From positions 62,001 through 126,000 of the forward strand of contig JACQFP010000033.1 in assembly GCA_016200005.1 (NCBI GenBank): 64,000 nucleotides of DNA, given 5' to 3'. Within the stretch, counting starts at the first letter, position 1. Each line of letters begins with the position of its first letter. Below, piece after piece: positions 23,557-59,384 of the stretch. Source of the DNA: Verrucomicrobiota bacterium. Its GTDB lineage: Bacteria > Verrucomicrobiota > Verrucomicrobiia > Limisphaerales > PALSA-1396. Both the position numbers and the translations under genes were made by a program. The notes beneath the pieces were generated by a model. It did not search any database, had not been told where the DNA came from, and saw nothing but the letters and a program-made list of their open reading frames with translations.

Positions 23557-23716
23557 GAGAAGAGGGGCTTGGGTGATGTCATAACGTCAGACCGAAGACC
23601 GAAAACCGGCTGACGATTTCCTGTGGCGGCCGTCGATTCTCGTTTCAAAGACAGGGTTGACTCCAACCTGCCAGGGAGCAGACTGCGGATTGGCGTCCGG
23701 TCCTGGAGCAACCCAG

Positions 23717-24436
23717 ATGAACTCCACCGCGGCCATTTTCGCCACCACCCACTGGAGTGTGGTGCTGGCGGCAGGCCAATGCACCGATGCGCAAGCGTCG
23801 GAAGCCTTGGAGCAGTTGTGCCGCACCTATTGGCATCCGCTCTACGCCTTCGTCCGGCGGCGCGGCTTTGACCTGGAGGAAGCCCAGGATCTCACCCAGG
23901 AGTTTTTTTTCCGTTTGCTGCAAAAGAACCGGCTTTCCTTCGCCGATCCACGCCGCGGGCGATTCCGCTCTTTCCTGTTGAGTTCCATCAACCACTTTCT
24001 GGCCAACGAATGGGACCGGGCGCACGCCGTGAAGCGAGGCGGTCGCGTGACTTTCCTGCCGCTGGGGGACGATTCCGTCGAACAACGATGTATGGAGGGG
24101 GGATTGTCACAATCTTCGCCGGAACAAGTCTATGAACATTGTTGGGCGCTCGCCCTGTTGGAAAAAGTGCTCGGGCGTTTGCGCGCGGAAGCGGTGGCCG
24201 CCGGGCGAGCAAAGCAGTTCGACGAACTGAAGGTCTTTTTGACCGGAGAGCAAGACTCAGGCTACGCGGAGCTGGCGCGGAAGCTGGACACAACTGAAGG
24301 GGCTTTGAAAATGGCGGTGAAAAGGTTGCGCACCCGCTATGGCCAACTGCTGCGGGAAGAGATTGCGCATACCGTTGCTGATCCCAAGGAAGCCGAGGAC
24401 GAGTTGCGTCACCTGTGCGCAGTTCTGAGTGGGTGA
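23717..24436 (+). CDS. ECF-type RNA polymerase sigma factor, kinase-associated group
   Basis: A 239-residue sigma-70 family protein. Region 2 is AFVRRRGFDLEEAQDLTQEFFFRLLQKNRLSFADPRRGRFRSFLLSSINHFLANEWDRA; region 4 is KQFDELKVFLTGEQDSGYAELARKLDTTEGALKMAVKRLRTRYGQLLREEI. The THWSVVLAAG opening, the PRRGRFRSFLL segment and the E-E-I-A-x-T-V tail are the hallmarks of the sigma factors that Planctomycetes and Verrucomicrobia encode next to Ser/Thr kinases. The ATG at 23717 is chosen because THWSVV follows at once. The kinase gene lies about 250 bases downstream, and a recurrent element starts three bases after the stop. No anti-sigma gene is adjacent, so the kinase may be the regulator (inference). 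Confidence 0.9.
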   Translation: MNSTAAIFATTHWSVVLAAGQCTDAQASEALEQLCRTYWHPLYAFVRRRGFDLEEAQDLTQEFFFRLLQKNRLSFADPRRGRFRSFLLSSINHFLANEWDRAHAVKRGGRVTFLPLGDDSVEQRCMEGGLSQSSPEQVYEHCWALALLEKVLGRLRAEAVAAGRAKQFDELKVFLTGEQDSGYAELARKLDTTEGALKMAVKRLRTRYGQLLREEIAHTVADPKEAEDELRHLCAVLSG

Positions 24437-24439
24437 AGC

Positions 24440-24470
24440 GTTACTTGTCGTCCCGGTTTGCTTTAGTAAC
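24440..24470 (+). promoter_or_regulatory. Recurrent element, copy 1, behind the ECF sigma gene
   Basis: GTTACTT, then 12 bases, then TGCTTTAGTAAC. The same halves with 11 bases between them occur at 29320-29349, upstream of the gene at 29444. GTTACT and AGTAAC are inverted repeats. Position upstream of the kinase operon suggests a promoter or operator. Confidence 0.55.
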
Positions 24471-24550
24471 GGTCGTGAGGGTCGTGTCAGGCCGCACCGC
24501 CGGGCCGAAGTGATTTGCGCTTTGAACCGCTGAACCGGACGGTCGGCGAC

Positions 24551-24665
24551 GTAGCGCAGACTGGAGTCTGCTGTGTCGCGGATTGGCAATCCGCGGACGC
24601 CGCCAGCGTGGGGACGGCCCGCCGACTGCCAGTCGGCGAAACAGCAGGTTGCCAACCTGCGCTAC
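24551..24665. repeat. Dispersed palindrome cluster (GTAGCGCAGA type), copy 1
   Basis: The ends GTAGCGCAG and CTGCGCTAC are inverted repeats. Inside are smaller palindromes such as CAGACTGGAGTCTG, CGCGGATTGGCAATCCGCG and CGCCGACTGCCAGTCGGCG. The related copy lies at 56656-56771. It ends 25 bases before the kinase start. Confidence 0.8.
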
Positions 24666-24689
24666 GGAGCGGAGTGACGGTCGGATCGC

Positions 24690-27600
24690 ATGATGAACAT
24701 GAACGCCACGCGTATTTGCAGCCGATGCAAAAGCGAGCTGCCCAGCCATGCGCCGGAGGGCCTCTGCCCCAGGTGCCTGCTGAAGGCTGGCGCGGCCGAG
24801 TGGGGCTTGGCGTTCGGCGGAGGCGGAGAACCGGGGGCCGGCTTCGGCGGACAGAGGTTTGGGAATTTCGAACTGTTGGAGAAGATCGGGGAAGGCGGAA
24901 TGGGGGTGGTTTACCGGGCGCGCCAAGTCAACCTGGACCGTATTGTGGCAGTGAAACTCCTGCCGTCGGGCCCGTTGAGCCGCGAGGACGCGGTCGGGCG
25001 GTTCCGGGCTGAAGCAAACGCGGTTGCCGCTTTGCAGCATCCGCATATTGTCGCCCTTCACGAGGTGGGGGAACACGAAGGTCGCCCCTATTTCTCGATG
25101 GACCTGATCGAGGGGCAGACGCTCGCTGAACTGGCACGCGATGCCCCGCTCCCGGCTCGACGCGCCGCCGGCTACCTGAAACCGGTGGCCGAAGCCATCC
25201 AATACGCCCACGACCACAACATCGTTCATCGCGACCTCAAGCCCTCGAACATCATTGTGGATGAACTGGACCAACCCCACATCACCGACTTTGGTCTGGC
25301 CAAACGCCTGACTTTGGACTCGTCACTCGCCACTGGTCACTCGTCACTCACCCTGACCGGCCAGGTGCTGGGGTCGCCCAGTTTCATTTCGCCCGAGCAG
25401 GCCGGGGGCCGCTCGCGCGACGTTGGTCCCGCCAGTGACATCTATTCTCTTGGCGCCCTGCTGTATCACCTGCTCACCCGGCAGCCGCCGTTCCAGGCGG
25501 ATACGCTCACCACGCTGTTGAAGCAGGTGGTTGAAGTCGAGCCGCTCATGCCGCGCTTGCTGAATCCCAGCATCCCGGAAGAATTGGAAACAATTTGTCT
25601 GAAGTGCCTCGAAAAAGAGCCCGGCCGTCGTTACCCGACCGCGCAGGCACTGGCGGACGACCTCGGCCGATTCCTGGCCGGCGAGCCGATCCTCGCCCGC
25701 CCGGTAAACTTGCTGGGCAAGACGTGGAAATGGTGCCGGCGCAGGCCGGCGTTCGCTAGCCTGGCGGCGGCCTTGGTTCTCACGTTTCTCCTGGGGGTGA
25801 CCGGAATCCTCTGGCAGTTGAAAAGAGCCAGAGCCGGCGAGATGCTGGCCTTGCGCCACGCGTATGCGGGGGACATGACCATTGCGCAACAAGCATTGAA
25901 GGAGGGGAGTCTGGGGCGCGCGATCGAGTTGCTGAACAAGTATCTGCCCGCGGGAAAAGCAGAAAGTAGAAAGCGGAAATCCGAAATGGATTTGCGCGGC
26001 TGGGAATGGCGATATTTGTGGGGCCTGTGCCGCGAGGATGCGCACTTCAAACTCACTCAGCATTCAAACGCTTTGGTCAATGTGGCTTTTTCACCCAACG
26101 GCAAGCTGCTGGCGGTGCGGCACAGGAGCGGCATCATTGATCTGTGGGATTGGACTGCGCGGCGGAAAACCGGCCAACTGTTCAACCAAGGTGCGAGGAA
26201 CGCGATGGCCTTTTCTCCACAGGGTGACTTCATTGTTTCAGGCGATAGCGATACCAACGGGAACCATTCGATCAACATTTGGGATGTTGCGAACCAACGA
26301 CTCGTTTCCTCGATTCCCCAGCCCCGTATGGTCACCGCGCTCGCCCTTTCCCCGGACGGCACTTTGCTGGCGGTGTATTACGCCGATCCCAAGTGTCGGA
26401 TTCTGCGCCTGCCCTCGGGCGACATTGTCAAGAACCTGCCAGCTTCAGAGTTTATAAACGGGGACACGCGCGTCCCGTTGTTCTCCCCGGACGGGGCCAC
26501 GCTCGTGCTTGGGGAGTGGGGCGGAACGATTCGACTAATGAACTGGCGAACCGGCCAGGAGCGGAAAATACCGCCTCCCTCTCCCGACAGCGAGTGCGTG
26601 ACGGCCCTGGCTTTTTCGCCCGACGGCCGGATTCTGGCTTCCGGCTACGGATATTCCGATGGCATTATTCGCCTTTGGGATGTCGCTTCCCTTGACCCTC
26701 TGGGCCGCCTGGAAGGTCATCGGGGCTGGGTTTCGAAACTGGTTTTTTCTCCCGATGGCCGGACGCTCTTCTCTGCCAGTGACGACGAAACGGTTCGGGC
26801 ATGGGCCATTCAACAGAAGCGCGAGACACGCCGCTTTCAAGGCCACACCTCGGGACTGCGAGGATTGGCTGCCTCTCCCGACGGCCGAACCCTGGTGAGT
26901 TGCGATTCAGATGGCTCGGTACGGGTTTGGGACGCATTTGGCAAACCGCGGCCACCGGCGCATCAGAAGCTGCCATTCCCTGTGGTGAATTGCGGCGTTC
27001 CCTTCACGGCGGACAGCCGCCGCCTTTTCACCGCTTCGCTCACGAACCCAGTCACCGTCTGGGATGTCGCCACCGCGTCTGAGGTCCAACGCATCTCCGC
27101 CCTGGGCACCAATAATTTCAGCCTGGCGCTCTCGCCAGATGAGCGCCTGCTGGTCATCGGGGGTTATGATGGAATGATTAAGGTTTGGGACCTCAAGAAC
27201 AAAAGACTGGTGAAGCAATTCCGACCGCATCAGATCCCCATCTATGGAGTCCTTTTCTTTGATCAAGGAAAGACGCTCGTGTCCTTTGCCATGCTCACGC
27301 ACCGTAAGGTGGAGGTGATACGTTGGGACGTGGCCTCGTGGCAGAGCGTTCCTTTTGGTCCGATTGATGTGGATTGGGCTTATGGTCTCGCCCAGTCTCC
27401 CGACCGGCGCCTGCTGGCCGTGAGCTACACTGGCAAGCCGCCGCTCAAATTGTGGGACTGGACCTCAGGCGAGTTGAAGAGGGTGCTGGTTTCAGACACC
27501 GGCGGATCGTTTGCACCCGTCTTCTCCACGAATGGTCGCCTCCTGGCCGCCCCGGTACGTGGCGAGGCGCGGGTCTGGGACGCGTCTTCCTGGCGCGAAG

Positions 27601-27926
27601 TGGCTACTTTGTCGGTTCACGCGAATAGCGTCGTCTCAGTGGCATTCTCCCCCGACGGCAAACGGTTGGTGACCGGAGGATCTATCGGAGGACAACTGCA
27701 GCCGGCCCTCCAGGTTTGGGATTATGTCGGTCAACGAGAGCTGATCGGCCTGGACGCCGTCGGGAACTGGACTATGTGGACGCGTTTTTCTCCCGACGGG
27801 AATACGCTGGCGGCGCTGAGCTGGGACGGTGTCGCCGACCTCTGGCACGCACCCTCCTGGGAGGAAATCGAGGCGGCCGAAAAGGATGGCAACCATCAAC
27901 GTGATTCCGGGGCTGAAGTGAAATGA
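24690..27926 (+). CDS. Transmembrane Ser/Thr protein kinase with WD40 beta-propeller
   Basis: A 1078-residue receptor kinase. A zinc-ribbon-like CSRC..CPRC (residues 10-29) precedes the kinase domain (about 58-340). Kinase motifs are glycine loop GEGGMGVVY (68-76), Lys89 in [14 protein letters not shown] (180-187), DFG (200-202) and SPEQA (234-238), all intact, so it should be active. The activation segment carries an unusual low-complexity stretch, [12 protein letters not shown]. One membrane helix, [21 protein letters not shown] (about 355-375), leads to a non-cytoplasmic region with [14 protein letters not shown] and at least ten WD40-type blades ([12 protein letters not shown]...[54 protein letters not shown]). 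The stop overlaps the pseudopilin start by four bases (ATGA). Confidence 0.92.
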
Positions 27927-29080
27927 AAACGAACCACAGATCCCTTGGCGTGGGCGAAGGAAGAACCCCGCAGTTGGTGGCTGGCCACTGCGGCCATGAA
28001 CTGCGTGGGTTGGTAGGGCGCGGCACTCCGTGCGCGCCGCCGGTCGGAGGGGGTCTTGCGAACGGCGCGCACGGAGTGACGCGCCCTACCTTGAGGTTCG
28101 TGAATAAGCTCACTCTGGATTCCGACCTCGAACGTCGGACCTCAGATTTGGAAGTCAGAGCCGATCCATGTCGCCGGAGCGCGGACAGCCATGTCCGCGA
28201 GTCCCCAACCACTGCGCCAGGATTACGCGGACATGGCTGTCCGCGCTCCGAGCGGCGTAGCCACCTCCTCGGTTTCACCCTCATCGAACTACTCGTCGTC
28301 ATTGCGATCATTGCCATTCTCGCCTCGCTCCTCTTGCCCGCGCTGGGAAAGGCGAAAGCCAAGGCGCAGGGGATCGCGTGCGTTAGCAACCTCAAGCAAC
28401 TCCAGCTTTGCTGGCAGATGTATTGCGGGGATTTCAATGACGCGCTGCCGCCCACCACACCGGACTTCGGCAGTATGAACGATCGCGCCGCCCTGTCGGC
28501 CACGCCAGACTCCTGGGTGTTCGGCAATGCCTGGACTGACACGACCTCGGACAACATCCAGCGCAGCGTGTTGTTCAGCTACAACCGGTCCCTGGGCATT
28601 TATCGCTGCCCGGCCGACAAGTCCACCGTGCGCGACCAGGGCACCATCCCACGAACCCGCAGCTATTCGCTGAGCTGGTCCATGGGCATGTGGCCGGACC
28701 GGGCCGACTGGCGTCATCCATACACCTGGCATCGGTTCAATCAGATTCGCAATCCGAGCCCGGCCCAGGCGCTGTTGTTCGTGGACGAGCACGAAAACGG
28801 CATCGCACAGGGCCTCTTCTGCTACAACAACCCAGACTTCTACGTATATCCTGGAACGACCGTGTGGACGTGGCTCAGTTTCCCGGCCACGCGCCACGGC
28901 AACGCCGGCACGGTGAGTTTTGCCGATGGACATGCCGAAGTGTGGCATTGGAAGGAACCGACGACGCTCAAACCGCCGCAGGCGAACCTCTGGCCGGATT
29001 TCAGGCCCGCCGTGCCCAACACCGATCGTGACCTGGGCCGTTTCTTCCGCGCCATTCCCGTAAAGGTGCCGATTCCCTGA
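27923..29080 (+). CDS. Pseudopilin-like protein with repeat-expanded leader
   Basis: A 385-residue type II secretion/type IV pilin-like protein. The N-methylation and cleavage motif [19 protein letters not shown] starts near residue 116, followed by a C-terminal domain with [36 protein letters not shown] and the end motif [15 protein letters not shown], as in the abundant 'H-X9-DG' pseudopilins of Planctomycetes and Verrucomicrobia. The ATG at 27923 overlaps the kinase stop (ATGA). The leader of about 115 residues is far longer than normal because two palindromic repeats (28012-28090 and 28176-28249) lie in frame within it. In-frame GTG codons near 28076 or 28103 could be alternative starts. 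Confidence 0.85.
28012..28090. repeat. Palindromic dispersed repeat family 1 (GGTAGGGCG), copy A
   Basis: The 28-bp arms begin GGTAGGGCGCGGCACTCCGT and end ACGGAGTGACGCGCCCTACC, separated by about 23 bp. Compared with copy C, the flanks (GCGGCCATGAACTGCGTGG on one side, CTTGAGGTTCGTGAA on the other) also match in inverted orientation, so the full element is longer, about 120 bp. It is read in frame in the pseudopilin leader. Confidence 0.9.
28176..28249. repeat. Palindromic dispersed repeat family 2 (GGAGCGCGGACAGCC)
   Basis: The arm GGAGCGCGGACAGCCATGTC plus CGCG is repeated exactly in reverse complement at the right end (24 bp), around a 26-bp centre. Read in frame in the pseudopilin leader. 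Confidence 0.9.
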
Positions 29081-29151
29081 ACCTCCTCGGCCGGCGTCAG
29101 CAGCGACGCCCGGCCAAAAACCTGGGCAACGGTTCAGCGGACGACAACGAA

Positions 29152-29235
29152 GGTAGGGCGCGTCACTTCACTCCGTGCGCGCCGCAACTGGCAACCCACC
29201 CTCCGAACGGCGCGCACGGAGTGACGCGCCCTACC
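29152..29235. repeat. Palindromic dispersed repeat family 1, copy B
   Basis: Arms as in copy A, left arm with a five-base duplication (CACTTCACTCCGT). It lies between the pseudopilin gene and the gene at 29444. TTATGGCCGCGATGC follows, as after copy C. Confidence 0.9.
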
Positions 29236-29319
29236 CTCTCAGCAGGCTTATGGCCGCGATGCGCCATTGTGGAATCTTGGACGCTTTACATGGCGGAATC
29301 CCACCGAACGGCTCGTTCC

Positions 29320-29443: not shown

Positions 29444-30007
29444 ATGAAAACGTTGCTAAACAAACTGCCGAAAGGCAGGATCACGCGTTGGGGATTCCTC
29501 GCCGTGCTGCTGATCGCCGCTGGGGCGACGGTGGGCTGGATGAACCAAAGGCATTACCAACTGGGCGGGTCTTGGATCGGCAAAGGAGCTGGAAGCGTCT
29601 GGACCGCAGTGCATGCGCCTTTGGACCCGGAGGCCCAGACAATGGCCGGTCATGTCAACTTCCAGTCCTATGGCCCCGACACTGCCGGCCTAATCGCCGC
29701 TTTTGGCGGAGACAGGATGAGTGAGTTCGTCGGTGAAACGAAGATGATCAACCGTGACACGGCCAAATGGACCCTGGTGGGCTATGTACAGGCGGGTCAG
29801 AACCCGCCGCAGATCGTTGCCATCATCATTGGGCACGGCACCTGGAAATACACCGATCGTGACCACGCGGTGTTGAATTACACCATCGATACATATCCGG
29901 CGGCGGCGGACGCGGACGGCGACGGGATGCCCGACCCGGGCGCCATACCGGTGGTCACGACTCCCGGCGTGATAGACACCGCCCAGCGCGTGCCCATCCT
30001 ACCATAG
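29444..30007 (+). CDS. Small membrane-anchored or secreted protein of unknown function
   Basis: A 187-residue protein with a positively charged N-terminus and one hydrophobic helix (WGFLAVLLIAAGATVGWM), then a non-cytoplasmic domain of about 140 residues: YQLGGSWIGKGAGSVWTAVHAPLDPEAQTMAGHVNF and NRDTAKWTLVGYVQ, strands that suggest a beta-barrel or lipocalin-like fold (inference). The acidic ADADGDGMPDPG near the end looks like a calcium loop. An AAAGGTT ribosome site precedes the ATG. Family not recognised. It shares an upstream 30-bp element with the kinase operon. Confidence 0.7.
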   Translation: MKTLLNKLPKGRITRWGFLAVLLIAAGATVGWMNQRHYQLGGSWIGKGAGSVWTAVHAPLDPEAQTMAGHVNFQSYGPDTAGLIAAFGGDRMSEFVGETKMINRDTAKWTLVGYVQAGQNPPQIVAIIIGHGTWKYTDRDHAVLNYTIDTYPAAADADGDGMPDPGAIPVVTTPGVIDTAQRVPILP

Positions 30008-30138: not shown

Positions 30139-32910
30139 ATGAAAACGAAACCAAACCAATCCATGAACCTCAAGGTAGAGCGCGTCACGCCGTGCGCGCC
30201 GCAACTGGCAACCCACCCTCCGAACGGCGCGCACGGAATGACGCGCCTTACCAATCCACGCAGTTTATGGCCGCGTTGCCCGGGCGCCGACCGTAGTTTT
30301 CTCCTCGCGTCCGCGTTGTTTCTGGCCGCCGCCAGTATCTGCTTTGCCCAGCCCGTCATCACCAACCAGCCCCAAACGCAGGCCACGACTCCCGGCGCGA
30401 CTGCCACCTTCGACGTCGGCGCGAGGGGCACAGAGCCGCTCGCTTACCAGTGGCAGAAAAACCCGGGCAACGGTTTTTCCGACCTCGCGAACTGCACCAA
30501 TGCCGCGCTGGTCCTGACCAATGTGCAGCCGTGGGACGCGTGTGACTACCGCGTGGTCATTACCAATCTCACCGCTGGGAGAACCAGTGCCGTGGCCCGC
30601 CTTTATGTGATGCGGCCGGCACTGGTGACGACCAACGTGGTGGTCGACAATTTCGATGACAACAAGCTGACCGGGTGGAGCTTGATGAGCAATGCCGAGG
30701 GTGGACTCATCGAAACCAACCAGCAGTTCAAAGTGCGCGGCCTTTGGCGTGGTTATCCGACTCCAGAATTGGGCATCTGGACCAAGGGCTTGCGGACCAA
30801 GAACTGGAACCTCGCTATCGGTCAGACCCTGGAGTGGCGGGTTGACGTCGTCGGCATGAATGAGAACACGAGTGACGTAGTAATCGAGCCTGGCTATTTG
30901 GGCACCTACGAAGCCTACATGTTTATCAAGGGGCGCAACGCTATTTCCATCGTCAAACTTACGGGGGGAGATGGTGTCGTGGCTTTTTCCTGTGACCCGG
31001 TCGTGATCAAGAATACGAATGTCGTCCTGGCGCTGGCGATGTCGCGGATGGGCGCGGATGTGGTTCTTACGGCCCGCGTTTTGGACAAGGACAACCTCAA
31101 CGCCGTCCTCTATGAACGCCGCTTTGTAGATACGCCCGAGATTGATCGGTCACTCACCACGGCCGAAGTCCTAGCCTTGACCGGCAATTCAGTGCCGTTT
31201 GCGCCGGACGTAAGACGAGCGCCAGTGACCATGGGGGATGTTGTGGACCTCAAGATATTCCAATACAACTGGGGCACAAACTCAACGGCCGAGGTCACTT
31301 TCGACAACCTTGAACTGTGGACATCCATGATTCCTAGGGCGCGCTACGTGGACGTGAACAGCACGAACCCGACGCCGCCCTTCACCAACTGGCTCACTGC
31401 GGCGACGAACATCCAGGACGCCGTGGACGTGGCACAGGCGGGCGACGAAATCGTGGTGACCAACGGCATCTACGCCACCGGCGGGCGGGCGGTGGGAACA
31501 AACATTCTGGTCAACCGCGTGGCGGTGGAAAAGTCGCTCACGGTGCGCAGCGTCAACGGGCCAGCGGCGACCGTGATCGACGGGGCTGGAACCGTGCGTT
31601 GCGCCTACGTGGGCGAGAGCGCGCTCTTGAGTGGATTTACGCTGACCAATGGGAATACCTATACGTTGATCAATGGGAATGTATTGGTTGGTGATGGTGC
31701 TGGGGTGTTCTGTGAGCGGTTCGGAGTGGTAACCAACTGTACTTTGAGCGGCAATGCGACTGGTCTCGGGTTGGTGGGGTGGCTCGGGGCCGGCGGCGGG
31801 GCGTCTGGCGGCACGCTTTACAACTGCACATTGAGCGGGAATAGAGCTGCATACGGGGGTGGGGCTTCCGGGAGCCTGCTTTACAACTGCACCGTGACCG
31901 ACAACTCAGCACCCGGCACTGCATTCGGCTCTTTCGGCGGCGGGGTGGACGCGAGCACGCTGAACAACTGCACGCTGACGGGCAACTCGGCTGAGTACGG
32001 CGGCGGCGGGGCGTCTGACAGCACTTTGAACAACTGCACGCTGACCGGCAACTCGGCGGACGAGGGCGGTGGGGCGTTTGCGAGCACGCTTTACAACTGT
32101 ACGCTTACCGGCAACTCGGCAAGTCGGCAGGGTGGTGGGGGCGTGGCGCGCGGGAGTACCCTCTACAACTGCACGCTAACGGGCAACTCGGCAGCTGAGG
32201 AGGGGGTGGGGTCTGGAGGCGGAGCGAGCGGGAGCATGCTCTACAACTGCATCCTCTATTCTAACACCGCTCCGAGCGGTCCAAACTACGCGCCTGATCA
32301 TTGGAATTCAGTTTACTTGAACTACTGTTCCACGACGCCGATGCCAACGAACGGTTTCGGCAACATCACCAACGCGCCGCTCTTCGTGAATCACGCCGGC
32401 GGCAACCTGCGCCTGCAATCCAACTCCCCCTGCATCAACGCCGGCCGCAATGCCTACGCCCCCGGCCCCACAGACCTGGACGGCCTCCCGCGCATCGTCA
32501 GCGCCACTGTGGACATCGGCGCCTACGAGTTCCAAGGCCCCGGCTCGATGATTTCCTACGCCTGGCTCCAGCAATTCGGCCTGCCCACCGACGGCTCGGC
32601 AGATGCCACGGACCCGGACGCCGACGGTCACACCACCTGGCAGGAGTGGCGTTGCCAGACCGATCCCACCAACGCGCTCTCGGTGTTGCGCCTGCTGTCG
32701 GCTTCGCCCGCCGGCACCAACGTGACCGTGAGTTGGCAGAGCGTGGCCGGGGTAAACTATTTCCTGGAGCGCAGCACGAATCTGTGGGCCAGCCCGCCGT
32801 TCGCGCTGTTGTCCCCGAACCTCCCCGGCCAACCCGGCACGACGACTTTCACCGACACCAATGCCGCGCCCCTGGCTCCGCTGTTCTACCGCGTGGGGGT
32901 GGGGAACTGA
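30139..32910 (+). CDS. Secreted right-handed beta-helix protein with Ig-like domain
   Basis: A 923-residue protein from the ATG at 30139. The signal peptide SFLLASALFLAAASICFAQ is preceded by about 50 residues, of which about 26 are encoded by palindromic repeat copy C. An Ig-like domain (PVITNQPQTQATTPGATATFDVGARGTEPLAYQWQKN) is followed by a jelly-roll-like region from DNFDDNKLTGWSLM. A pectate-lyase-like beta-helix begins at RYVDVNSTNPTPPFTNWLTAATNIQDAVD. Eight coils with the NCTLTGNSA motif follow, then GAYEFQGPG and an acidic DATDPDADGHTTWQEW segment, and a C-terminal strand domain ending FYRVGVGN. It is probably a surface polysaccharide-binding or -degrading adhesin. Its paralog lies at 34001. 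Confidence 0.8.
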   Translation: MKTKPNQSMNLKVERVTPCAPQLATHPPNGAHGMTRLTNPRSLWPRCPGADRSFLLASALFLAAASICFAQPVITNQPQTQATTPGATATFDVGARGTEPLAYQWQKNPGNGFSDLANCTNAALVLTNVQPWDACDYRVVITNLTAGRTSAVARLYVMRPALVTTNVVVDNFDDNKLTGWSLMSNAEGGLIETNQQFKVRGLWRGYPTPELGIWTKGLRTKNWNLAIGQTLEWRVDVVGMNENTSDVVIEPGYLGTYEAYMFIKGRNAISIVKLTGGDGVVAFSCDPVVIKNTNVVLALAMSRMGADVVLTARVLDKDNLNAVLYERRFVDTPEIDRSLTTAEVLALTGNSVPFAPDVRRAPVTMGDVVDLKIFQYNWGTNSTAEVTFDNLELWTSMIPRARYVDVNSTNPTPPFTNWLTAATNIQDAVDVAQAGDEIVVTNGIYATGGRAVGTNILVNRVAVEKSLTVRSVNGPAATVIDGAGTVRCAYVGESALLSGFTLTNGNTYTLINGNVLVGDGAGVFCERFGVVTNCTLSGNATGLGLVGWLGAGGGASGGTLYNCTLSGNRAAYGGGASGSLLYNCTVTDNSAPGTAFGSFGGGVDASTLNNCTLTGNSAEYGGGGASDSTLNNCTLTGNSADEGGGAFASTLYNCTLTGNSASRQGGGGVARGSTLYNCTLTGNSAAEEGVGSGGGASGSMLYNCILYSNTAPSGPNYAPDHWNSVYLNYCSTTPMPTNGFGNITNAPLFVNHAGGNLRLQSNSPCINAGRNAYAPGPTDLDGLPRIVSATVDIGAYEFQGPGSMISYAWLQQFGLPTDGSADATDPDADGHTTWQEWRCQTDPTNALSVLRLLSASPAGTNVTVSWQSVAGVNYFLERSTNLWASPPFALLSPNLPGQPGTTTFTDTNAAPLAPLFYRVGVGN
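30174..30252. repeat. Palindromic dispersed repeat family 1, copy C
   Basis: Left arm GGTAGAGCGCGTCACGCCGT and right arm ending GAATGACGCGCCTTACC are slightly diverged. The flanks AACCTCAA and AATCCACGCAGTTTATGGCC match copy A inverted. It lies in frame between the start codon and the signal peptide of the beta-helix protein. Confidence 0.9.
31737..32260 (+). repeat. Coding tandem repeats, beta-helix coils of the first paralog
   Basis: Eight imperfect units of about 60-75 bp built on AACTGCACGCTGACCGGCAA, each encoding one coil with N-C-T-L-T-G-N-S-A. Confidence 0.85.
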
Positions 32911-33121
32911 ACGCAGAGGTGAAACGCAAAGACGCAAAGGCGCAAAGACGCAAGGAACAACGAAGAATCAATGCAGCAACGAACTGTCAGTTCTCAGAGT
33001 GTGTCTGAAGAATCGCGTTGGGTGTCCACCCTTCAGGGTGCCAGGCCGCCAGAACACGCTGAAGCGTGGACACCAAACCGCTGCGGCCTCCGCGTCTTTG
33101 CGTCTTTGCGTTGGACTCGAA
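32911..33121. repeat. Nested dispersed repeats (GCAAAGACGC type) after the beta-helix gene
   Basis: GCAAAGACGCAAAGGCGC at 32925 faces CGTCTTTGCGTCTTTGCG near 33093. Nested inside is a second inverted repeat, GGTGTCCACCCTTCAG (33021) with CTGAAGCGTGGACACC (ending 33074). No gene is supported between 32911 and 33216. Confidence 0.8.
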
Positions 33122-33216
33122 TCGTAGAAATCCGAAACCCGAAAGAAAACCGAAACACGATGGCAATCCAAACGCAGAATCCAAGGTTACGGCGGAGCCC
33201 GTCCGGCAGGCGTCCG

Positions 33217-33516
33217 TTAGGCCTTCCCGGCCTCGCCCCGCAGAATCTCGCCAAACAATTCGTACACGACCGGACGCTTTTCGGCGAAAACGCAACGAGC
33301 GACGCGCTGGCCACCCTGAGCGTAGAATCGAACCACCACCCGGTAGCTTCCTACTCGCAGACGGGCGTAGCCGGCGAGGTCCGCTTCGAGTTGTTTCAGG
33401 TCGCCTTTTTCCTGCTCCAGCCCGCGCAGCGCGCGGCGCAGGCGCAGGCGCGGCTCCGGCGCCAAGGCCCGAACGAAGCCGGCCACCTGCGGATCGAGTT
33501 CGACTCTAAGCTTCAT
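33217..33516 (-). CDS. RelE/ParE-superfamily toxin
   Basis: A 99-residue protein: MKLRVELDPQVAGFVRALAPEPRLRLRRALRGLEQEKGDLKQLEADLAGYARLRVGSYRVVVRFYAQGGQRVARCVFAEKRPVVYELFGEIL. The order of helices and strands, and YARLRVGSYRVVVRFY, is the RelE/ParE core (R-x-G-x-Y-R-v-v-f). Basic residues in the core (Arg in LRVGSYR, Lys/Arg in AEKRPVVYE) match RelE-type active or binding sites. It could be a ribosome-dependent mRNA interferase or a gyrase inhibitor; sequence alone does not decide. It overlaps the antitoxin gene by 11 bases. Confidence 0.85.
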   Translation of the reverse strand: MKLRVELDPQVAGFVRALAPEPRLRLRRALRGLEQEKGDLKQLEADLAGYARLRVGSYRVVVRFYAQGGQRVARCVFAEKRPVVYELFGEILRGEAGKA

Positions 33517-33748
33517 CGAGCGCCGACAAGGGGAGATAGCGGCCTTTGCCGGAGCGGTCGCGGCGGAGGGCGCGGAGGGCCTGTGGGTTGGCCAGGATTT
33601 CCATGGTCTCCAGCAGCGCCTCCATCCGCTCGCGCGGCACCAGAAACGCCACCGTTTCATTGGCCTGCCGCAGGGAAACGGTCTGTTTGGTGCGCACCAG
33701 CTTGGGCAACCGCGCCTGCGCCTCCGCAATGTCGAACGTCGTTTTCAC
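33506..33748 (-). CDS. Phd/YefM-type antitoxin
   Basis: An 80-residue protein: FDIAEAQARLPKLVRTKQTVSLRQANETVAFLVPRERMEALLETMEILANPQALRALR. This is the Phd/YefM fold (a-x-x-r-L-p-x-L followed by the strand 'VAFLVP-RERMEALLETMEIL' linker). It should repress its own operon and neutralise the RelE-like toxin encoded 11 bases into its 3' end. The pair is in opposite orientation to the beta-helix genes around it. Confidence 0.85.
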   Translation of the reverse strand: MKTTFDIAEAQARLPKLVRTKQTVSLRQANETVAFLVPRERMEALLETMEILANPQALRALRRDRSGKGRYLPLSALDEA

Positions 33749-34000
33749 GCTGTTGCTTTAACACGAAGCCGGACCGCGCGCAACAACGGCTTGTGGCCTG
33801 CCCAGCGCAACGCAGGCAACGAAAAGCGGCACCGGCAGGCTTCGTTCCCTGCGTTTGCTTCTGTGGGCCACAGGAATCCACGTCCCGGTGGCCTGGCTGG
33901 CTCGCGGTTGACCAAGCCCTCGCCAGGGGCAGGGCAAGAATTCCTGTGACAAATTCCCGGTTTTCCCTCTGTAACCAGTGAACCGACGACCGAAAGAACC

Positions 34001-35959
34001 ATGAAAACAAATCAAACAAATCCAAACCGCTGGCCAGAAACTTCAATCGCCGTCAGAGAACGCAAGGAACGCATGGAGCCAAGGCTCGTGCTCTCTGCTT
34101 TGCGCTCCTTGTGTTCTTTCGCGGCCATCCTTCTCCTCCTGCTTTCCACCGCCAGCGCCTCCGCCGCCACGCGCTACGTCTGGCAGGACAGCCCCAGCCC
34201 GGCGCCGCCCTATACCACCTGGACCACCGCCGCCCACGTCATCCAGGAGGCCGTGGACGCGGCGCAGACGGACGAGACCGTCCGGGTCGCCGGCGGGGTG
34301 TACGCCACGGGCGGACGCGCGGTGGGAACAAACGTGCTGGTGAATCGCGTGGCCATTGACCGGGCCGTTACGGTCGAAAGTTTGATGGGAGCGGAGGTGA
34401 CGATCATCCAAGGCTACCAGGTGCCCGGCACCACCAACGGCGACGGCGCGATTCGCTGCGTGTATCTCGCCAACGGCGCCAGCCTGTCCGGGTTTACCCT
34501 GACCAGCGGGGCCACGCTTACCAACGGGAATTGGCAATTGGAGAGATTGGTGATTCACGGCGGCGGGCTGTGGTGTGAATCCACGAACGCTTTTGTGACC
34601 AACTGCGTCATCACAGGCAACTCGGCTGCCGGGGCCGGCGGCGGCGCGTTTCAGGGCACTTTGAACAACTGTACACTGACCGGCAACTGGGCATCCGGCG
34701 GCGGCGGGGCATGTGAAGCCACGCTGAACAACTGTACCCTGACTGGCAACTCGGCTGGCTAGGGCGGTGCGGCGTGTGGCGGCGCGTTGAACAACTGCAC
34801 GCTCACCGGCAACTCGGCTGATCAAGGCGGCGGGGCAGGTGATGCCACGCTGAACAACTGCACGCTGACCGGCAACTCCGCTTACTACTCCGGCGGCGGG
34901 GCGACTTTTAGCACGCTGAACAACTGCACACTGACCGGCAACTCGGCCGGCGGCGGAGGCGGAGCGATGTACAGCACGCTTAACAACTGCACGGTGAGTA
35001 GTAATTCGGCCACATTGGGCGGCGGGGCCTCGCGCAGCACACTCAACAACTGCACTGTGGCTGAGAATTCGGCTTCTGGAGGTGGTGGTGGAGTTGAGAT
35101 TGGCACACTCAACAACTGTACGCTGACCGGGAATCGGGCCAGTGGGACCAGTGGGTTTTCTGGCGGCGGGGGGGCGGCAGGAGGGACGCTTAACAACTGC
35201 AGCTTAACCGGCAATTCGACCGCGACCTGGGGCGGAGGGGTCATTGGGGGCGACATGTTTTGGGGACCCCTCACCCTGAACAACTGCACGCTGACCGGCA
35301 ATTCTGCTTCTTTATCCGGCGGCGGGGCGTTGGGGGGCACACTGAACAACTGCATCGTCTATTTCAACACCGCCACGAATGGAGCGAACTACGCGACCAG
35401 TCCTCTTTTCACTACCCTGAACTACTGTTCCACAACGCCGATGTCCACCAGCGGTTTCGGCAACATCACCAACGCGCCGCTGTTCGTGGATTACGCTAAC
35501 GGCAATCTGCATCTGCAATCCAACTCCCCCTGCATCAATGCCGGCCTCAATGCCTATGCTCCCGGCTCAACGGACCTGGACGGCCTCCCGCGCATCGTCA
35601 GCGGCACGGTGGACATCGGCGCCTACGAGTTCCAAGGCCCCGGCTCAGTGATTTCCTACGCCTGGCTCCAGCAGTACGGCCTGCCCACCGACGGTTCGGC
35701 GGATGCCACGGACCCGGACGCCGACGGCCACACCACCTGGCAGGAGTGGCGTTGCCAGACCGATCCCACCAACGCGCTCTCGGTGTTACGCCTGCTGTCG
35801 GCGACGCCCAGCGGCACCAACGTGACCGTGAGTTGGCAGAGTGTGGCCGGGGTAAACTATTTCCTGGAGCGCAGCACGAACCTGGCGTCAATACCGCCGT
35901 TCACTCCGCTGGCCACCGGCATTCCCGGCCAGCCAACGGCCACGGGCGCCGGGCGCTAA
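34001..35959 (+). pseudogene. Secreted beta-helix protein, paralog of 30139, broken by an amber codon and C-terminally damaged
   Basis: One reading frame runs from the ATG at 34001 to 35959 except for TAG at 34760-34762, between two beta-helix coils (NCTLTGNSAG-stop-GGAACGGALNNCTLTGNSAD). The N-terminus has a signal (LRSLCSFAAILLLLLSTASASA) and the same beta-helix opening as the paralog (YATGGRAVGTNVLVNRVA). Twelve coils follow, then the shared GAYEFQGPG and DATDPDADGHTTWQEW tail. The final strand domain stops early at QPTATGAGR, where the paralog continues to FYRVGVGN; the following bases read NFF in another frame, suggesting a deletion plus frameshift. The upstream part could still make a truncated 253-residue secreted protein. 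Confidence 0.85.
34600..35370 (+). repeat. Coding tandem repeats, beta-helix coils of the second paralog
   Basis: Twelve units of about 60-80 bp around AACAACTGCACGCTGACCGG. More units than the eight of the first paralog, with several nearly identical neighbours, as expected of repeats that expand and contract. Confidence 0.85.
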
Positions 35960-59303: not shown

Positions 59304-59382
59304 GGTAGGGCGCGTCACTCCGTGCGCGCCGAAAACTGGAAACGATCCGCCAAACGGCGCGCACGGAGTGACGCGCCCTACC
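59304..59382. repeat. Palindromic dispersed repeat family 1, copy D
   Basis: Same 28-bp arms as copies A-C (GGTAGGGCGCGTCACTCCGT, ACGGAGTGACGCGCCCTACC). It ends two bases before the ATG of the radical SAM gene, occupying the place of its ribosome-binding site. 59273-59303 holds nothing else. Confidence 0.92.
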
Positions 59383-59384
59383 AC

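What the first reader, a model, noticed from the sequence alone, without database searches (positions are those of the whole stretch)
30139..35959. Tandem beta-helix paralogs with variable coil number and a near-identical 3' third
The genes at 30139 and 34001 share opening motifs and an almost identical tail at DNA level (long exact blocks around CACCTGGCAGGAGTGGCGTT). Yet they have eight and twelve coils. Coil units such as AACAACTGCACGCTGACCGG are almost identical within genes. This suggests gene conversion and unit expansion, which could diversify a surface protein.
Basis: partly seen in the sequence, partly recalled or inferred. Interest (0 to 1): 0.6.

Follow-up and report, generated by a model that had tools for sequence, protein, structure and literature searches.

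The report
Mosaic beta-helix paralogs, one broken
Two neighbouring genes for spiral-shaped (beta-helix) secreted proteins belong to a large verrucomicrobial family whose front and back parts have been exchanged between genes and between distant species; one of the two carries a stop codon, so the pair is not a simple tandem duplication with local gene conversion.

Summary
The observation largely holds: two beta-helix genes with 8 and 12 coil motifs share a 3' block (32318-32800 / 35418-35900; 92% nt over its 130 best-aligned codons, longest exact run 59 nt). A candidate toxin-antitoxin pair lies between the two.

The shared tail is not special to this pair: gene 1's tail is equally close to a paralog on another contig (dS 0.21) and to genes of distant genomes of the order (dS 0.20-0.33), where rpoB is near synonymous saturation. 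The 5' caps of the pair are unrelated (dS 0.68, AU p=0.002), and gene 2's cap is closest to a third lineage (dS 0.18). The genes are therefore mosaics in a horizontally exchanged family. Sister MAGs differ by presence or absence of one member.

Unit expansion is not supported for gene 1: its coils share synonymous codons no more than coils from unrelated genes (50% vs 45%, p=0.18). It is weak for gene 2 (58%, p=0.01) and clear in some relatives. One same-genus orthologue pair keeps its coil number.

The parts
30139..32910 (+). Gene 1: N-terminal segment, Ig-like domain, jelly-roll-like segment, helix cap, 8 coil motifs, choice-of-anchor Q domain, C-terminal tail; open throughout
   Evidence: ORF; Ig_3 PF13927 33.6 bits; NF041518 43.0 bits, cut-off 25; the jelly-roll label is inference from sequence pattern and homologues
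30174..30253 (+). Copy of a palindromic interspersed element (further copies on many contigs) inside the N-terminal coding region of gene 1, in frame
   Evidence: DNA search of own genome, 36 matches counted on both strands; the C22 copy carries it at the same place
31345..31600 (+). Helix N-cap of gene 1 (YVDVNSTNPTPPFTNW...), nearest to C22, L141 and L083
   Evidence: cap alignment and tree
31725..32280 (+). Gene 1 coil array, 8 motifs
   Evidence: predicted right-handed beta-helix, coil blocks mostly pLDDT 83-97
32318..32800 (+). Tail block of gene 1 shared with gene 2, C22 and genes of other genomes (choice-of-anchor Q, DPDADGHTTWQEW segment, start of C-terminal beta domain)
33217..33748 (-). 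Candidate Phd/YefM-like antitoxin (33506-33748) and small toxin-like ORF (33217-33516) between the two genes
   Evidence: PF02604 E=0.007, below gathering score; no Pfam match for the second ORF
34001..34762 (+). Gene 2, 5' part: signal-peptide-like start, helix cap of the YVWQDSPSP type, first 3 coils, ended by TAG 34760-34762
   Evidence: cap closest to L116 (87% nt, dS 0.18)
34763..35959 (+). Gene 2, 3' part in the same frame: 9 further coil motifs, choice-of-anchor Q, shortened tail without FYRVGV
   Evidence: NF041518 42.5 bits
35418..35900 (+). Tail block of gene 2 shared with gene 1

Best explanation
Genes 1 and 2 are two members of a large, multi-copy family of secreted right-handed beta-helix (choice-of-anchor Q) proteins in Limisphaerales-type Verrucomicrobiota. 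Shown here: the family is spread through the order with very different coil numbers, and its genes are mosaics. The helix cap with its upstream part and the 3' tail have different histories, and tails and caps are shared between genes and between distant lineages far more closely than the genomes are, so neighbouring paralogs can share a tail while carrying unrelated caps. Gene 2 carries a nonsense codon and a degraded 3' end. Inferred: the protein is exported by its signal peptide, the coil stack forms an elongated rod, and the conserved tail works as an anchoring or secretion module; exchange happens by homologous recombination after horizontal transfer, with the strongly conserved tail as landing point; gene 2 is decaying, as is the C22 copy of gene 1 (frameshift), which points to birth-and-death turnover rather than an active switch.
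For: Family and copies: at least 7 related genes in this genome and 320 related stretches in the scan of species genomes, with 2 to 47 coil motifs per reading frame. Fold: AlphaFold2 model with confident coils; best PDB matches include PL6 lyases, tailspikes and rhombotarget A. Mosaicism: g1-g2 cap dS 0.68, tail dS 0.21; Fisher p=1e-4; AU rejects g1+g2 on caps (p=0.002) and g1+g2+C22 (p=0.0008), but not on tails (p=0.18 and 0.46). Gene 2's cap is closest to L116 (dS 0.18), whose genome's rpoB dS from this genome is 1.40. Horizontal sharing: tail dS 0.20-0.33 and 4-fold identity 75-80% to L087, L083, L092, L123 and L086, against rpoB 4-fold identity 35-51% for the same genomes. Vertical control: same-genus orthologue tails C22b/G001a have dS 0.74, and rpoB of that pair of genomes 1.05. 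Gain/loss: L123's beta-helix gene is missing at the syntenic place of sister MAG G040, whose flanks match at 90-93% nt. Decay: TAG in gene 2, frameshift in C22.
Against: Nearly all genomes used are MAGs, so binning and consensus errors cannot be excluded; only the L123 contig was checked against a sister genome. The order of branches inside the tail clade is unresolved, so donors and direction are unknown. Tail GC3 is high (0.81-0.88), which raises chance identity at 4-fold sites, although old paralogs in the same genome still show only 34-61% to gene 1. Gene 2's tail dN/dS against relatives (0.13-0.29) shows no relaxed selection, so its loss of function would be recent or the stop could be an error. 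Surface display and anchoring by the tail are not tested.
Confidence: 0.72

Rival explanations
1. One reading: gene 2 and gene 1 arose by tandem duplication, coil units expand and contract, and gene conversion between the two keeps the 3' third alike, diversifying a surface protein.
For: Gene 1's tail is closest to gene 2's by raw identity (92% over the best 130 codons). Gene 2's coils share codons slightly more than random coils (58% vs 45%, p=0.01), and several relatives do so strongly.
Against: At synonymous sites the tail is equally close to C22 and L087 (dS 0.20-0.21). The caps are not sister sequences. Gene 1's coils show no excess within-gene codon sharing (p=0.18). The only orthologue pair found keeps its coil number. 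Gene 2 has a stop codon.
Confidence: 0.15
2. No recombination: the tail is simply under much stronger constraint, at protein and codon level, than the cap, so it looks young everywhere.
For: The tail is more conserved in protein than the cap in several pairs; GC3 is high.
Against: Tails of old paralogs and of a vertical same-genus orthologue pair have high dS (0.74-1.46). Gene pairs that are not mosaic have similar 4-fold identity in cap and tail (g1-L083 77/78%, g1-C42 57/52%). Gene 2's cap is young relative to L116.
Confidence: 0.08
3. Gene 2 is functional: the TAG is a consensus error of the MAG in a repetitive stretch, or is read through, and the short C-terminus is a natural variant. (This concerns gene 2 only and can hold together with the best explanation.)
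For: The frame is otherwise open for 1.9 kb, tail dN/dS against relatives stays 0.13-0.29, and the array is repetitive.
Against: A second lesion (lost FYRVGV end) exists. TAG serves as the stop of the ORF ending at 30007, and no recoding signal is known here.
Confidence: 0.3

Closest known systems
Choice-of-anchor Q domain proteins / right-handed beta-helix proteins of PVC bacteria (NF041518)
   Same: Both genes score above the curated cut-off (43.0 and 42.5 bits) with the coil, anchor Q and tail order seen in relatives
   Different: Nothing that sets these two apart as a family; the new points are the mosaic history and the broken copy
Chlamydial polymorphic membrane proteins (Pmp; PMC11166332)
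   Same: Multi-copy beta-helix proteins of the PVC group; coils with a GGA motif and a hydrophobic-x-x-N motif (GGGA...LTGN here, GGA(I,L,V)/FxxN in Pmps)
   Different: No autotransporter barrel found; Pmp repeat model below cut-off in gene 2 (20.1 vs 20.6 bits) and not reported for gene 1
PL6 polysaccharide lyases and phage tailspikes (Foldseek hits 7o78, 6f7k)
   Same: Right-handed parallel beta-helix fold
   Different: Low TM-scores (about 0.3), 10-15% identity; catalytic residues not examined

Membership tests
Choice-of-anchor Q domain proteins (NF041518) | Domain score over the curated cut-off of 25 bits | tested here: met
   43.0 bits (gene 1) and 42.5 bits (gene 2, 3' part)
Right-handed parallel beta-helix proteins | Stacked coils of short parallel strands | tested here: met
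   AlphaFold2 model of gene 1 from the cap on, coil blocks mostly pLDDT 83-97, regular short strands; beta-helix proteins dominate the top Foldseek hits
Chlamydial Pmp autotransporters | GGA / FxxN coil repeats (PF02415) | tested here: inconclusive
   gene 2 20.1 bits against cut-off 20.6; not reported for gene 1
Chlamydial Pmp autotransporters | C-terminal outer-membrane beta-barrel | tested here: not met
   no autotransporter family reported for gene 1 or gene 2 in Pfam at E up to 1
Tandem paralogs homogenised by gene conversion | Paralogs of one genome more alike than to other genomes in the converted tract | tested here: not met
   tail dS g1-g2 0.21, g1-C22 0.21, g1-L087 (distant genome) 0.20; tail clade mixes genomes
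Repeat-number-variable surface proteins | Recently duplicated units within the gene | tested here: inconclusive
   gene 1 p=0.18, gene 2 p=0.01; L141, L087, L083, L058, L062 p<=0.001
Repeat-number-variable surface proteins | Unit number differs between strains | not testable with these tools
   no second strain of this species held; the same-genus orthologue pair C22b/G001a has equal coil number

The most novel reading that the evidence does not exclude
Limisphaerales-type Verrucomicrobiota share a horizontally circulating pool of beta-helix genes whose cap and tail are swapped between distant lineages by recombination at conserved ends, so that coil arrays of any length are shuffled between a set of standard ends: a natural cassette-like exchange of cell-surface rods.
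Probability: 0.3. Interest if true: 0.62.

Novelty: new member of a known kind. Interest (0 to 1): 0.36.

Why it matters
If the exchange between distant lineages is confirmed, the beta-helix proteins abundant in this poorly studied order are accessory, shuffled genes rather than fixed structural ones, which would change how their copy numbers and coil numbers are read in metagenomes. It also shows that a shared tail between neighbours is not by itself evidence of local gene conversion.

Tried and rejected
A simple tandem duplication was rejected by the cap tree. Local conversion as the sole cause of the tail similarity was rejected by equal synonymous similarity to C22 and L087. General codon constraint on the tail was rejected by old paralogs and a vertical orthologue pair. 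A conserved sigma-kinase-prepilin-helix cassette was examined: related kinase or prepilin DNA lies near the helix gene in L073, L077, L082 and L085, but motif counts over 46 long loci found few (the prepilin pattern used there was too strict), so no claim is made. Finding L083's gene at a syntenic place in G041 failed: flanks not collinear. Literature searches for this family in Verrucomicrobia found nothing specific. A first quick tail tree gave an incomplete search and was replaced by a careful one.

Full report
What is there. The window lies in a Verrucomicrobiota genome of 6.5 Mb in 87 contigs (G000, contig C33). Gene 1 (30139-32910) is open throughout and encodes an Ig-like domain (PF13927), a further beta-rich segment, a helix cap, eight coil motifs of the type STLNNCTLTGNSAxxGGGA, a choice-of-anchor Q domain (NF041518, 43.0 bits) and a C-terminal tail ending FYRVGV. 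Gene 2 starts at 34001 with a different N-terminus and cap. It stops at an in-frame TAG (34760-34762) in the third coil, and the same frame then runs on to 35959 with nine more coil motifs, the anchor Q domain (42.5 bits) and a shortened tail. A weak Phd/YefM-like ORF and a small partner lie on the minus strand between the genes.

The shared 3' third. The two genes align without gaps at an offset of 3100 from about 32331 to 32770, 82-98% in 40-nt windows, and identity collapses on both sides. The longest exact run is 59 nt. Over 158 codons identity is 87%.

Is the tail special to this pair? No. A paralog on contig C22 (L073) has tail dS 0.21 from gene 1, as gene 2 has, and L087, from another genome, has 0.20; L123 has 0.26, L092 0.30, L086 0.31 and L083 0.33. 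In the search by family only one other genome (G001) was held for the window's family, and rpoB 4-fold identity to the genomes of L087, L083, L092 and L086 is 51, 35, 36 and 49%. NG86 dS of rpoB is 2.9 (L092's genome) and 1.5 (L086's), undefined by saturation for L083's, and could not be computed for L087's because of an ambiguous base. Even the same-genus genome G001 has rpoB dS 1.05. A control inside the family, the same-genus orthologues C22b and G001a, has tail dS 0.74, and gene 1 against old paralogs in the same genome (C42, C22b) has 0.78-1.46. So low tail divergence is not a general property of the tail. Together this points to horizontal sharing of this tail type.

Caps tell a different story. 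Gene 1 and gene 2 caps are 65% identical with dS 0.68, and the data reject them as a clade (AU p=0.002). Gene 1 is nearest to C22, L141 and L083, although g1+C22 itself is not strongly supported (59/88). Gene 2 groups with L116 (100/100) and then L086 (99/99). L116's cap has dS 0.18 from gene 2's while its genome's rpoB dS is 1.40. 4-fold identity of the g1-g2 pair is 16/32 in the cap and 70/81 in the tail (Fisher p=1e-4). Gene 2 is thus a mosaic. L086 has the same cap type with the same tail type, so the joining need not have happened in this genome.

Contig check. Because the relatives are almost all MAGs, one was tested for contamination. The 5.2 kb downstream of the L123 helix gene match sister genome G040 at 90-92%, and a 283-nt piece upstream matches at 93%. 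In G040 the 3.1 kb carrying the helix gene is replaced by 1.3 kb without similarity to it. The gene therefore sits in a genuine contig of its lineage and is present in one sister and absent in the other. Other relatives were not checked in this way.

Coil units. At synonymous codons, coils inside gene 1 agree in 50% and coils drawn from unrelated genes in 45% (p=0.18); gene 2 gives 58% (p=0.01). Several relatives (L141 81%, L062 79%, L058 76%, L087 71%, L083 66%) show clear recent unit multiplication. About a third of genes with four or more coils exceed the null at p<0.05 (26 of 72). Coil number varies greatly across the family. The orthologues C22b and G001a, at 75-81% protein identity, keep six coils one to one, although G001a is itself frameshifted in the MAG.

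Decay. Gene 2 has the nonsense codon and a degraded end. The C22 copy of gene 1, which lies in a second copy of the prepilin, small gene and gene 1 block (80-92% nt), is frameshifted upstream of its cap. These may be real or MAG errors. Gene 2's tail shows no relaxed selection against relatives (dN/dS 0.13-0.29), so any loss is recent.

How it probably works. Export by a signal peptide, a beta-helix rod, and a conserved C-terminal module. The tail segment alone matches many otherwise different large reading frames across the order, which fits an anchoring or secretion function, but this is inference. The coil motifs resemble the GGA(I,L,V)/FxxN coils of chlamydial Pmps, whose motifs are thought to be structural (PMC11166332); no autotransporter barrel was found here, so it is Pmp-like in shape and not a member. 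The AlphaFold2 model is confident only for the coil stack (mean pLDDT 68 overall), and fold matches are generic beta-helix proteins.

Verdict. The most useful result is the evidence for mosaic, horizontally exchanged beta-helix genes, which needs read-level and genome-wide confirmation.

Noticed in passing
window 27990-28102, 29150-29262, 30174-30253, about 59304-59383: Palindromic interspersed element of about 80 nt present at many places in the genome; two inverted copies flank or overlap the prepilin-like ORF 27923-29080, and one lies in frame in gene 1's N-terminal region.
   Followed up: partly
L073 (G000 C22:186000-197500): Second copy of the prepilin, small gene and gene 1 block at 80-92% nt, with its gene 1 copy frameshifted.
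   Followed up: partly
L123:4548-7693 against L188 (G040 C44): A beta-helix gene is present in one MAG and absent at the syntenic place of its sister, replaced by 1.3 kb without similarity to it.
   Followed up: yes
L083:6260-7904: 1.6 kb is 99% identical to G041 C207 although the two genomes are about 91-92% identical in rpoB and fusA; possibly a recently moved piece.
   Followed up: no
G000 genome: 134 matches to the prepilin-like protein at 27923-29080, a very large family of [13 protein letters not shown]-type proteins.
   Followed up: no
window 23657-27926: Sigma-70 region 2 (ECF-like) protein next to a large Ser/Thr kinase with WD40 repeats upstream of the prepilin and helix genes; related DNA occurs near helix genes in L073, L082, L084, L085, L099 and L130.
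   Followed up: partly
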